From the NCBI GenBank assembly GCA_030066015.1, contig JASJCL010000037.1, forward strand, positions 1 to 64,000: a DNA stretch of 64,000 nucleotides, given 5' to 3'. Positions 28,595 to 53,083 of this stretch are shown here, one piece after another. A model generated the notes under the pieces. It worked only from the letters and a program-made list of their open reading frames with translations. It ran no database searches and was not told the DNA's origin. Made by a program: the position numbers and the translations under genes. Source of the stretch: Desulfosarcinaceae bacterium (lineage in GTDB: Bacteria; Desulfobacterota; Desulfobacteria; Desulfobacterales; Desulfosarcinaceae). Within the stretch, counting starts at the first letter, position 1. Each line of letters opens with the position of its first letter.

Positions 28595-29365
28595 ATGGAT
28601 CTGGCAACCGTTCTCGGACTGGTCAGCGGCAGTATTCTCATCCTGATCTCCATTCTGATGGGAGGCAGTGCGGGTATCTTCTTCAATGTCCCGGGGCTAC
28701 TGATTGTGGGCGGCGGCACTATCGCGGCCACTTTCATTAAATTCAAGATGGGAGACGTCATCGGTTCCATCAACGTCGCCATGAAGGCTTTCCTCCAGAA
28801 AATGGAAAGCCCCGAAAACATTATCAACGAGATGGTGAATTTCACCCGTATCGCCAAAAAGGAGGGACTCATCGCCTTGGAAAAGGAGACGCCGACCGAC
28901 GAGTTCTCCGCCAAGGCGCTGCGCTATCTCTCCGACGGCTATGATGAAGGTCTCATCGAGGATATGCTCAACAAGGACATTCGATTGACCCTCCAGCGCC
29001 ATATGACAGGTCAGAGCGTGTTCAAGAGCATGGGAGACGCTGCCCCGGCCTTTGGAATGATCGGTACCCTCATCGGACTGGTGCAGATGCTGGCATCTAT
29101 GGAGGATCCATCCACAATTGGCCCGGCGATGGCCGTCGCCCTGCTGACCACCATGTACGGTGCCGTTATCGCCAATCTGATATGCCTACCTCTGGCGGAC
29201 AAACTGGCGCTGAACAGCGAAAAAGAGAAGCTGAATAAGAGCATTATTCTCGAAGCCGCCATCGCCATCAATCGCGGGGTCAGCCCCATGGTACTGGAAG
29301 AGTCCTTGAAGATTTTCCTCTCCCCTAAGAATCGCGACAAGGTCGTGGAAGAAGCGGAAGAATAG
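28595..29365 (+). CDS. motA: flagellar stator protein MotA/PomA (set 1)
   Basis: A 256-residue inner-membrane stator subunit with four transmembrane helices: two near the N-terminus (about 5-50), then a large cytoplasmic loop, then two helices around SMGDAAPAFGMIGTLIGLVQML and GPAMAVALLTTMYGAVIANLICLPLADKL. These are the conserved MotA helices 3 and 4. It would conduct ions with its MotB partner, which begins 3 bases after the stop. The sequence is closer in style to PomA (sodium) than to E. coli MotA, but ion choice cannot be proven. It is encoded downstream of the HD-GYP regulator, away from the main cluster, on the opposite strand. Confidence 0.93.
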   Translation: MDLATVLGLVSGSILILISILMGGSAGIFFNVPGLLIVGGGTIAATFIKFKMGDVIGSINVAMKAFLQKMESPENIINEMVNFTRIAKKEGLIALEKETPTDEFSAKALRYLSDGYDEGLIEDMLNKDIRLTLQRHMTGQSVFKSMGDAAPAFGMIGTLIGLVQMLASMEDPSTIGPAMAVALLTTMYGAVIANLICLPLADKLALNSEKEKLNKSIILEAAIAINRGVSPMVLEESLKIFLSPKNRDKVVEEAEE

Positions 29366-29368
29366 CCC

Positions 29369-30124
29369 ATGGGCGCCCCCGCCGACAACTGTCCGCCCTG
29401 TGAGAAAGGCGCTCCGAGGTGGGTCACCACCTTTGGGGACCTGATGAGCCTCTTGCTCTGTTTCTTTGTCCTTTTGCTATCTTTTTCCGAAATGGATAGA
29501 GCGAAGTATAAGCAGGTGGCCGGTTCGATGGAGAAAGCGTTTGGCGTCCAGCGACGTACCCGCGTTATGGAATCTCCCAAAGGGATCAAGATGATCGCGC
29601 GCGATTTTGACCAAGAGGTGATCGCCACGCGCTTGAAAGAGGAGATCGGCCGTGAACTGGAAGAAGCGTTCAAGAATGATCTCTACGATGTGCGGGATCA
29701 ACTGGACGTCGGACTGGAACAGGACAATCTCGTTATTCGCATGATGGGTGAAAGCACCTTCGACTCCGGCAGCGCCGACATCCGAAAGCCGACCCAACCA
29801 CTATTGAAAAAGATCGGTCAGATCATTGCCAAGGCCAACAAGGATATTATCATCGCCGGCCACACTGACAATGTGCCGATTCACAGGGGACGGGGGACCT
29901 ATACCTCCAACCTGCGTCTCTCCATCGCCCGCGCTGCGGCTGTCGCAGAACTGCTTCTCGCCAGCAGCGAGATCGACCCTGCTCGACTCTCCACCATGGG
30001 CTTCGGCGAATACCGGCCCATCGCGGACAATGCCACCGCGGCTGGGCGTCAGAAAAACCGTCGTGTCGAAATCATCGTGGGGAAGATTCCCCAGACCCTT
30101 CCGGCAAACGCACCGCTCCCATAG
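29369..30124 (+). CDS. motB: flagellar stator protein MotB/PomB (set 1)
   Basis: A 251-residue partner of the upstream MotA. The single transmembrane helix (about 18-40) carries the ion-binding Asp24 in RWVTTFGDLMSLLLCFFVLLLSFSEMD, which resembles PomB. A plug/linker follows. The OmpA-like peptidoglycan-binding domain (about 130-245) contains IIAGHTDNVPIHRG, NLRLSIARAAAVAELL and NRRVEIIVGK. Both key features for a working stator are present. The gene ends 94 bases before flgL, convergent across a hairpin terminator. Confidence 0.94.
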   Translation: MGAPADNCPPCEKGAPRWVTTFGDLMSLLLCFFVLLLSFSEMDRAKYKQVAGSMEKAFGVQRRTRVMESPKGIKMIARDFDQEVIATRLKEEIGRELEEAFKNDLYDVRDQLDVGLEQDNLVIRMMGESTFDSGSADIRKPTQPLLKKIGQIIAKANKDIIIAGHTDNVPIHRGRGTYTSNLRLSIARAAAVAELLLASSEIDPARLSTMGFGEYRPIADNATAAGRQKNRRVEIIVGKIPQTLPANAPLP

Positions 30125-50356: not shown

Positions 50357-50818
50357 TTACTGGACGACGAACTCGGTGAAGTAGAGGTTGTTGATATTGC
50401 CGCTGGTGACGATGTCGTTCATGGCGGCGAGCAGTTCGTCGCGCAGAGCGATCTTACCCGGGGTGGTGTTGATGTCCGCAAAGGTCTTGGTCGGCAGAAT
50501 CATCAAGATACTGTCACGCACCTGCGGCAGACGTTTTTCAACCTCCTCGGTCATGTCCTGTGCTTCCAGTTCCAGCTCGATCGTCACCCGCAGATAGCGC
50601 TTACCGCCTTCGTCCGCCAAGTTGACGATCAAGGTTCCCAGAGAGTAAAGCGGCCCGATCTCGGCGGGCGCCTCCTCTTCCACGACCTCCTCTTCGGTCG
50701 TTGGCGCCGGCGCCGAAAGGGCCGACATCTTCGTCCAGAGGATAAAGAACCCGCCGCCCATAAGGGCCATAACAAAGAGCAGGAAGGCGGCGATGATAAT
50801 GATGAGGGTTTTGGACAT
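50357..50818 (-). CDS. fliL: flagellar basal body-associated protein FliL
   Basis: FliL, 153 residues, a single-pass inner-membrane protein that rings the stators and increases torque. A transmembrane helix (about 5-27, LIIIIAAFLLFVMALMGGGFFIL) is followed by an acidic linker (PTTEEEVVEEEAPAE) and a stomatin-like domain with LGTLIVNLADEGGKRYLRVTIELEL and LLPTKTFADINTTPGKIALRDELLAAMN, ending NLYFTEFVVQ as usual. It comes right after the two MotB-like genes, consistent with a stator role. Confidence 0.95.
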   Translation of the reverse strand: MSKTLIIIIAAFLLFVMALMGGGFFILWTKMSALSAPAPTTEEEVVEEEAPAEIGPLYSLGTLIVNLADEGGKRYLRVTIELELEAQDMTEEVEKRLPQVRDSILMILPTKTFADINTTPGKIALRDELLAAMNDIVTSGNINNLYFTEFVVQ

Positions 50819-50851: not shown

Positions 50852-51568
50852 CTATGGCCCCATCAGCAGGACGATCTCCACCCGCCGGTTGGCCGCACGC
50901 CCACTTGGAGTGTCGTTGGCGGCGATGGGTTTACTGTCCGCGTAGCCGACCGCGGCCATCCGCTCCGGTGCGATCTGACCGGTGCTGATGAGGTGCTTGA
51001 CGACCTGGGCGGCCCTGGCGGTGGACAATTCCCAGTTGGAGGGGAATCGGCTCGATGCGAGCGGGCGGTTGTCGGTGTGCCCTTCGACAAGGATGTCGCC
51101 CTCAATCCGGTTCAAGGCGGTCGCCACCTCCTGCAGAATTGGCAGCGCGGCTGGATTGAAACGGGTTTGCGCCGAACCGAACAGCAGCGCATCTTCCAGC
51201 GTGATCTGAATGCGGCGGGGCGACCAGGCGCTCGGCAGCCCCAGCCGCTCGCTAAGGCGTCTCAGTGCCAATACTTCTGCGACGACCTCCGGCGGCGGTG
51301 GCGCTCCTATCTCCGCTGGGGTCGATCTGGCGATGGATGGTTCAGGCGCCACCACGGCGACCTCTGTTTTCTGGCCCGCTTCCAGAATCCCAAAGGCGCT
51401 CTGCAGCTCACCGCGAAAATGCTTGAAGCGCTTCATGTCAACGGTGCTCATGCTGAAAAGCAGCACGAAAAAAACCATCAACAGGGTCATCATATCGTTG
51501 AAAGTGGTCAGCCAAATCCCTCTGGCCGGCGGCGATGCCGCCGCTTGGTGGCGTCCAGGCCGTCTCAC
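50852..51568 (-). CDS. MotB-like protein B (set 2), with ion-binding Asp
   Basis: A 238-residue stator-type protein. A single transmembrane helix (about 19-40) has WLTTFNDMMTLLMVFFVLLFS, keeping the ion-binding Asp25 six residues after the conserved Trp. The OmpA-like domain (about 130-237) has LVEGHTDNRPLASSRFPSNWELSTARAAQVVKHL and RRVEIVLLMG. It overlaps the other MotB-like gene by 4 bases (ATGA type) and precedes fliL. By these residues it is the functional MotB of this set. Confidence 0.9.
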   Translation of the reverse strand: MRRPGRHQAAASPPARGIWLTTFNDMMTLLMVFFVLLFSMSTVDMKRFKHFRGELQSAFGILEAGQKTEVAVVAPEPSIARSTPAEIGAPPPPEVVAEVLALRRLSERLGLPSAWSPRRIQITLEDALLFGSAQTRFNPAALPILQEVATALNRIEGDILVEGHTDNRPLASSRFPSNWELSTARAAQVVKHLISTGQIAPERMAAVGYADSKPIAANDTPSGRAANRRVEIVLLMGP

Positions 51569-52323
51569 TCGGCACCGCCCGCATCGAGTTCATGGGTTAA
51601 AAAGATGATCTCCACACGACGCTGCCGGGCCGCGGTGACGTCCCCCGGCAAGGGCTGATGCGACGCATAACCGGCGGCAGAGAGCCGGCTGGCAGGGATG
51701 CCGGTGGTCTCGAGAAAAAACCGCAGTACATTGACAGCCCGAGCGGTGGACAGCTCCCAGTTGGAGGGAAACTGAACCGTCCGGATCGGACGGTCATCGG
51801 TGTGCCCGGCGATACGCACCTGGCAGCGTACCTGGGCGATTAGACGCCCAATGGTGGTGAGGGTGGGTCTCGCTGCCGATTTAATGCGCGCCGTACCCGA
51901 ATCGAAGAGGGCGGCGTCGGGCAGGGTCATGACGACCGCCTTGGGATCCACGCGCAGTTCCACGTCGGACAATTCGTTATCTCCAGCGAAAGCGGCTATC
52001 TCTTCGACGAGTCGGGCGGTTGGGCTCTCTTTGGGAACGATCTCGGCTGCCGGTTTGAGGACTGTTTTGCCCTTGTCCAGACTGCGACCGCCGGAGAAGA
52101 TGTTGATGGCATCGGAGAAGGCCTCGGTGAACTGCATCACCTTGGCCTGCTCGAAAGAGGCGTAAGAGGTCAACATGATGAAAAAACAGAGCAGAATCAG
52201 AACAAAGCCCGTGTAGACGAGCTGCCATCCGTCTGAGGTCAGCGGCTTGTCCGACGATTCGCTGCGGTTATCGCGCCGACGCTTCTTGGTGAAGCGGTGG
52301 TGCTGCGGTTTAACGGTTGGCAT
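51565..52323 (-). CDS. MotB-like protein A (set 2), lacking the ion-binding Asp
   Basis: A 252-residue MotB-like protein. The basic N-terminus (KKRRRDNRS) leads to one transmembrane helix (about 33-53). It reads WQLVYTGFVLILLCFFIMLTS: the residue six after the conserved Trp is Gly39 where MotB/PomB have Asp, and Thr38 precedes it. The OmpA-like domain (about 135-240) is intact, with RIAGHTDDRPIRTVQFPSNWELSTARAVNVLRFF. The ATG at 52323 was chosen (GGTGG upstream; a GTG lies at 52332). It overlaps the motA stop by 14 bases and the second MotB-like gene by 4. Confidence 0.88.
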   Translation of the reverse strand: MPTVKPQHHRFTKKRRRDNRSESSDKPLTSDGWQLVYTGFVLILLCFFIMLTSYASFEQAKVMQFTEAFSDAINIFSGGRSLDKGKTVLKPAAEIVPKESPTARLVEEIAAFAGDNELSDVELRVDPKAVVMTLPDAALFDSGTARIKSAARPTLTTIGRLIAQVRCQVRIAGHTDDRPIRTVQFPSNWELSTARAVNVLRFFLETTGIPASRLSAAGYASHQPLPGDVTAARQRRVEIIFLTHELDAGGAE

Positions 52324-53083
52324 CAGTTCCACCGGGTCTCAGACGGGGTGACAGAAAGGCCTTCATCTTCTGTTCGACAATCCGATAATTATCACCGGCC
52401 TGAATGGCGATCACCCCCTCGATCACCATCTGCTTGGCCAGCATCTCTTGGCGGCTGCGCACTTTGAGCTTTCCGGATATGGGTAGGAACAGCAAATTGG
52501 CCAGCAGGGTACCGTAGAAGGTCGTCAACAGGGCAACGGCCATGGGGGCGCCGATGCCACTGGGGTCCTCCATCTGCATCAGCATCTGTACCAGGCCGAT
52601 GATGGTGCCCAACATCCCCACAGCGGGAGCGAAAGTGCCCATGGTGGAAAAGATCTCTGCACCCAGGCGGTGGCGTTCCTCCAGATAAACCACCTCGGTG
52701 GAGAGCACGTTTTCGATCGCCTCGGCCTCCATTCCGTCGATGGCCATCTCCAATGCGTTGCGCAAGAAGGGATATTCAACTTTGCTCAGCGCGTTCTCCA
52801 GCGAGAGAATCCCTTCACGGCGCACCTGCCGCGCCAGGGCGACGATCATGGGAATCATGCTGGTGGCCGGTTGGGAGCGATGCAGGAAGGCGTTTTTGGT
52901 CACCCGTAGAACACTGACCACGTCCTTGAGAGGATAGTTGATCAGGGTCGCGCCCATGGTGCCGCCGATAACGATCATCAGCGAGGGAACATTGATGAAC
53001 CAGGCGCCAGGGCCCCCCAGCAAAATGGAGCTGACCACCAGTCCGCCGGCCACCACGAGCCCCATGAATGTTGCGATATCCAT
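52310..53083 (-). CDS. motA: flagellar stator protein MotA (set 2)
   Basis: A 257-residue MotA-type subunit with four transmembrane helices: DIATFMGLVVAGGLVVSSILLGG and AWFINVPSLMIVIGGTMGATLI at the N-terminus, then after the cytoplasmic loop STMGTFAPAVGMLGTIIGLVQMLMQM and GAPMAVALLTTFYGTLLANLLFLPI. The ATG at 53083 with GGGAGA upstream starts MDIATFMG, as expected; longer frames add an unlikely 68-residue tail. A sigma-54-like promoter lies 96-111 bases upstream. It heads the block motA, motB-like A, motB-like B, fliL, fliM. Confidence 0.93.
   Translation of the reverse strand: MDIATFMGLVVAGGLVVSSILLGGPGAWFINVPSLMIVIGGTMGATLINYPLKDVVSVLRVTKNAFLHRSQPATSMIPMIVALARQVRREGILSLENALSKVEYPFLRNALEMAIDGMEAEAIENVLSTEVVYLEERHRLGAEIFSTMGTFAPAVGMLGTIIGLVQMLMQMEDPSGIGAPMAVALLTTFYGTLLANLLFLPISGKLKVRSRQEMLAKQMVIEGVIAIQAGDNYRIVEQKMKAFLSPRLRPGGTDANR

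What the first reader, a model, noticed from the sequence alone, without database searches (positions are those of the whole stretch)
50852..53083. One MotA followed by two MotB-like proteins, one with Asp replaced by Gly
MotB-like A has an intact OmpA domain but WQLVYTG where Asp is essential for ion flow; MotB-like B keeps Asp (TTFND). The overlapping stops and starts force co-expression. A 5:2 stator built with one of each could have one ion site, or A may be a scaffold, brake or FliL-like partner. A second complete motAB pair elsewhere shows stator exchange is possible.
Basis: partly seen in the sequence, partly recalled or inferred. Interest (0 to 1): 0.65.

Follow-up and report, generated by a model that had tools for sequence, protein, structure and literature searches.

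The report
Flagellar stator with one dead MotB
In many relatives of this bacterium the flagellar motor's ion-driven unit is encoded as one MotA plus two different MotB genes, of which one has permanently lost the amino acid that carries the ion, suggesting natural motors whose central axle has only one working ion site instead of the usual two.

Summary
In detail: motA, motB-A and motB-B lie head to tail (53083..50852, minus strand) in the flagellar operon between flgE and fliL. MotB-A has Gly39 where the pore Asp should be; MotB-B keeps Asp25. It is not a private mutation. In 46 complete Desulfobacterota triads from at least 22 family-level groups the first MotB always lacks Asp (31 Gly, 10 Ser, 4 Ala, 1 Asn) and the second always has it. 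The Asp-less copies form one clade, are under purifying selection, and carry no charged residue in the membrane helix. Some genomes with a flagellar export gene (one a 99% complete single contig) have only this stator. MotB-B has Asn before its Asp in 38/46 triads, a residue not seen in 126 non-tandem MotBs. In Elusimicrobiota, non-flagellar MotA-MotB-MotB triads lost the Asp independently, in the first or the second copy; among 76 tandem pairs it is never lost in both. I infer a heterodimeric stator, MotA5-MotB-MotB', with one ion site per axle. No paper found describes it; a review-fold symmetry of such motors 'almost certain to be a universal feature'. Mixed-dimer assembly is inferred, not shown.

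The parts
52310..53083 (-). motA: the single ring subunit of the triad
   Evidence: Pfam MotA_ExbB 96.8 bits; rotor-facing charges, two Pro and pore Thr conserved in triad MotAs; ATG at 53083 preceded by a GGGAG-type ribosome site
51565..52323 (-). motB-A: Asp-less MotB (plug plus OmpA domain), proposed neutral half of the axle
   Evidence: Pfam MotB_plug 34.3 and OmpA 55.8 bits; clade of 46 Asp-less first MotBs; dN/dS in related triads well below 1
52207..52209 (-). codon GGC, Gly39 of MotB-A, at the pore-Asp position
   Evidence: alignment to solved MotB 8UCS/6YSF
50852..51568 (-). motB-B: Asp-bearing MotB, proposed ion-binding half of the axle
   Evidence: Pfam MotB_plug 62.3 and OmpA 62.6 bits; Asp kept in 46 of 46 triads
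51494..51496 (-). codon GAT, Asp25 of MotB-B, preceded by Asn24 (triad-specific Asn-Asp)
51565..51568 (-). GTGA overlap of motB-A stop and motB-B start
50357..50818 (-). fliL, the separate true FliL gene just downstream
   Evidence: Pfam FliL 88.6 bits
28595..30124 (+). second, ordinary motA-motB pair (MotB with Asp); context, not part of the triad

Best explanation
The locus encodes a heterodimeric flagellar stator: five MotA around one MotB-A and one MotB-B. Only MotB-B carries the ion-binding Asp. MotB-A is a structural half-axle: an uncharged membrane helix inside the MotA ring, with a plug and a peptidoglycan anchor. Shown: gene order, Asp loss fixed in one copy, Asp kept in the other, purifying selection on both, intact MotA, and triad-only genomes that have flhA. 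Inferred: mixed-dimer assembly. Also inferred: with one site per axle the repeat unit becomes 72 degrees (five ions per turn of MotA5) instead of 36 degrees (ten ions), a gear with lower ion cost and lower torque.
For: 46/46 flagellar triads have an Asp-less first and an Asp-bearing second MotB. Over 76 tandem pairs, both-lost = 0. The Asp-less helices lack any charge and both flanking Thr but keep the pore-helix pattern. Asn before the Asp in 38/46 partners against none of 126 non-tandem MotBs with usable context. Triad-only genomes G038 and G457 with flhA and the flagellar operon. GTGA and 14-nt overlaps in the order A, B-A, B-B. dN/dS 0.06-0.43 for MotB-A. Independent Asp losses in Elusimicrobiota tandems.
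Against: No physical evidence of a mixed dimer; no complex could be modelled with the tools. The tandem order alone fits two homodimers sharing MotA. The loss in Desulfobacterota is a single old event, so the 46 triads are not independent. The Asn signature is absent from some triad lineages (8/46). Whether the triad-only organisms swim is unknown.
Confidence: 0.6

Rival explanations
1. Two complexes share one MotA: MotA5-(MotB-B)2 is the engine, and MotA5-(MotB-A)2 is a non-conducting decoy that docks at the rotor as brake, clutch or spacer.
For: MotB-A keeps the helix, plug and peptidoglycan domain needed to assemble with MotA; the co-transcribed order fits either assembly.
Against: The partner's pore site differs from that of ordinary MotBs (Asn before the Asp), which an unchanged B2 engine would not need. 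In Elusimicrobiota either copy can lose the Asp but never both, as expected for two halves of one machine.
Confidence: 0.22
2. MotB-A is a periplasmic scaffold or stator chaperone (FliL-like or MotX/Y-like) that does not enter the MotA ring.
For: It lacks the ion site; the OmpA domain is well conserved and the modelled periplasmic domain matches solved MotS/MotB anchors.
Against: It keeps the MotB plug and pore-helix pattern, uncharged throughout; fliL is a separate gene in most of these loci.
Confidence: 0.12
3. MotB-A is a decaying duplicate with no function, or the Gly is an assembly error.
For: The window copy has lost three residues in the loop before the final Arg-Arg motif.
Against: One old clade kept intact in at least 22 family groups, dN/dS well below 1, conserved order.
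Confidence: 0.03

Closest known systems
Flagellar stator MotA5MotB2 / PomA5PomB2 (e.g. PDB 6YKM, 8UCS, 8BRI)
   Same: MotA, MotB plug, OmpA peptidoglycan anchor, place in the flagellar operon
   Different: Two different MotBs behind one MotA, one without the ion-binding Asp
AglRQS gliding motor of Myxococcus xanthus
   Same: One ring subunit with two MotB/TolR-like subunits; whether they form mixed dimers is stated to be unknown (PMC9389320)
   Different: Both B subunits there are described as keeping the Asp; it is a gliding motor, not a flagellar one
Dual stator systems (MotAB plus MotPS, MotAB plus MotCD)
   Same: More than one MotB per genome; this genome also has a separate motAB pair
   Different: There each MotB has its own MotA and its own Asp (own knowledge); here two MotBs share one MotA and one lacks Asp
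FliL
   Same: Flagellar single-span protein next to the stator genes
   Different: MotB-A has no FliL domain and a true fliL lies just downstream

Membership tests
MotB family (MotB-A) | MotB_plug and OmpA domains above curated cut-offs | tested here: met
   34.3 and 55.8 bits against 24 and 27.2
MotB family (MotB-A) | ion-binding Asp in the membrane helix | tested here: not met
   Gly39 on the Asp column; 0 of 46 clade members have Asp. So MotB-A is a MotB homologue but not an ion-conducting MotB
MotB family (MotB-A) | periplasmic domain fold of MotB | tested here: met
   AlphaFold model matches MotS, MotB and PomB periplasmic domains
MotB family (MotB-B) | plug, Asp and OmpA domain | tested here: met
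5:2 flagellar stator (the triad) | MotA with rotor-facing charges, two Pro and pore Thr | tested here: met
5:2 flagellar stator (the triad) | five MotA and two MotB in one complex | not testable with these tools
   only single chains can be modelled
5:2 flagellar stator (the triad) | two equivalent ion sites | tested here: inconclusive
   true only if MotB-B homodimerises; not met if the dimer is mixed
FliL (MotB-A) | FliL domain | tested here: not met
   no PF03748 match in MotB-A; fliL is a separate downstream gene

The most novel reading that the evidence does not exclude
A natural flagellar stator, widespread in Desulfobacterota, with an asymmetric axle (MotA5-MotB-MotB') and a single ion-binding site, so that rotation has 5-fold rather than 10-fold periodicity and uses half the ions per turn; the same one-site solution evolved separately in non-flagellar Elusimicrobiota motors.
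Probability: 0.5. Interest if true: 0.85.

Novelty: new variant of a known kind. Interest (0 to 1): 0.72.

Why it matters
Current models of 5:2 motors let two identical ion sites alternate, and one review-fold rotational symmetry 'almost certain to be a universal feature' (PMC9389320). A conserved natural stator with one site would show that alternation between two sites is not needed. It would give a direct test of how many ions drive one step and whether the two MotB chains play different roles, and it suggests a gear change by gene duplication in energy-limited anaerobes.

Tried and rejected
Sequencing error or private mutation: rejected, 46 triads in at least 22 family groups. Asp shifted to a neighbouring residue: no D/E/K/R/H from -4 to +14 in any Asp-less copy. 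Asp-less MotB as a general variant outside triads: none found; apparent cases were triads cut or split by contig ends (L006, L137) or distant OmpA proteins, mostly alphaproteobacterial, whose Asp falls one column off. Wide spread in Pseudomonadota (200 genomes) or Nitrospirota (100): no tandem pairs at E <= 1e-45; that threshold would miss divergent pairs. The top four Nitrospirota hits were MotBs with Asp. L147 is a D/D tandem with no flagellar neighbours detected, treated as a separate duplication. Literature: searches found no description.

Full report
Observation. On the minus strand motA (53083..52310), motB-A (52323..51565) and motB-B (51568..50852) follow flgE and precede fliL, fliM, fliN, fliO, fliP, fliQ, fliR and flhB (gene names by homology). 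motA overlaps motB-A by 14 nt with a GGTGGA ribosome-site-like stretch; motB-A and motB-B overlap as GTGA. Both MotBs pass Pfam's plug and OmpA cut-offs. MotB-A Gly39 falls on the pore Asp of MotB 8UCS/6YSF. The genome (5.7 Mb draft, 97% complete) has three plug-bearing MotBs: this pair and an ordinary one with its own motA at 28595-30124.

Conservation. A phylum-wide search with MotB-A, an order-wide search with a profile of Asp-less MotBs (A1) and one scan of named genomes gave tandem MotBs behind one MotA. After removal of duplicates and incomplete loci, 46 Desulfobacterota triads share the asymmetry: first MotB G31/S10/A4/N1, second MotB D46, from at least 22 family-level groups. The one D/D tandem found in the phylum (L147) has no flagellar neighbours detected and branches elsewhere. 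Bacillota operons of the same order (L035, L036) have a single MotB between MotA and FliL, so MotB-A looks like an added gene between motA and the ancestral motB. In a FastTree tree built without the Asp column the 46 Asp-less proteins form one clade (support 98) near the Asp-bearing partners. The loss is thus old and kept, while the residue drifted among small uncharged ones. In pairs of related triads dN/dS, where dS could be estimated, is 0.06-0.43 for MotB-A and 0.06-0.49 for MotB-B; some pairs are near saturation, but both genes are constrained.

Chemistry. From -4 to +14 of the Asp position none of the 46 Asp-less helices has a charged or His residue. The Thr at -3 and at +3, each present in 44/46 partners, is replaced (by aliphatics in nearly all), whereas Trp at -6 (37/46) and Phe-Phe at +8/+9 (43 and 46 of 46) are kept. 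MotB-A therefore cannot bind an ion in the usual way but keeps a pore-type helix. The partner has Asn just before its Asp in 38/46 triads. Of 128 non-tandem MotBs two have it: one is a triad split between contigs, and the other begins about 200 nt from a contig end.

Sufficiency. In G038 (single contig, 99% complete) and G457 (single contig, 92%) the triad holds the only plug-bearing MotBs. Both have flhA and flagellar genes around the triad. G457 has no other MotA; G038 has only a weak, partial MotA/TolQ-like second hit. G086, G279, G293 and G026 also have one MotA and two MotBs. If these cells swim, the triad is enough. G273 is similar but has a second MotA-like gene.

Convergence. Elusimicrobiota contain many MotA-MotB-MotB triads. 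None of 24 such genomes has FlhA, so these motors are probably not flagellar. Here the pattern varies: both Asp kept, Asn in the second copy (10), or Gly in the first (2). Over all 76 tandem pairs: first lost 48, second lost 10, both kept 18, both lost 0. The tree needs at least six changes of state, so the rule rests on a handful of independent events plus long retention, not on 58 independent observations.

Mechanism. The simplest reading is a heterodimeric axle, MotA5-MotB-MotB', with one ion site. In the published turnstile model a 36-degree step swaps two equivalent sites and the complex has 10-fold periodicity (PMC9389320). A one-site axle should repeat every 72 degrees and use five ions per turn of MotA5, i.e. 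about half the torque and half the ion cost per turn. This is inference. The main rival, two kinds of homodimer sharing MotA, is not excluded.

Known or not. The closest described case of one ring subunit with two B subunits is Myxococcus AglRQS, where both B subunits are described with the Asp and mixed dimers are an open question (PMC9389320). I found no paper on Asp-less MotB partners, but most subscription journals are not held in the library searched.

Limits. The tree used FastTree. The AlphaFold model of MotB-A (mean pLDDT 71) is good for the periplasmic domain and the helix only, and no complex could be modelled.

Noticed in passing
L240 6879-8423, L242 6456-7922, L244 6835-8184, L246 11431-12864 (Elusimicrobiota): A secreted or membrane-anchored protein with FliG middle and C-terminal domains (two with a weak FliF C-terminal match) lies just upstream of MotA-MotB-MotB in genomes without FlhA: possibly a non-flagellar rotary machine with a FliF/FliG-like rotor and a two-MotB stator.
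   Followed up: partly
L240 10896-11810, L243 4042-5025, L246 7957-8823 (Elusimicrobiota): A TPR-repeat protein of about 300 aa follows the second MotB in several of these non-flagellar triads.
   Followed up: no
L239 6719-8597 (G457): No fliL was detected between motB-B and fliM in this triad-only genome, unlike most other triads.
   Followed up: no
window 51565-52323: The window's MotB-A has a three-residue deletion and QRR instead of NRR in the conserved OmpA loop near the C-terminus, which most other clade members keep intact.
   Followed up: no
L153, L154 (G376, contigs C817 and C1106): MotA and MotB-A lie at one contig end and MotB-B at another, and both ends carry the same repeated sequence, as if an element sits between motB-A and motB-B.
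   Followed up: no
triad membrane helices, position +13 from the Asp site: MotB-A has mostly small residues (Cys/Ser/Thr/Asn) where MotB-B has mostly Phe (34/46) and ordinary MotBs have Tyr/Leu/Phe, which could be a knob-and-hole contact between unlike helices.
   Followed up: no
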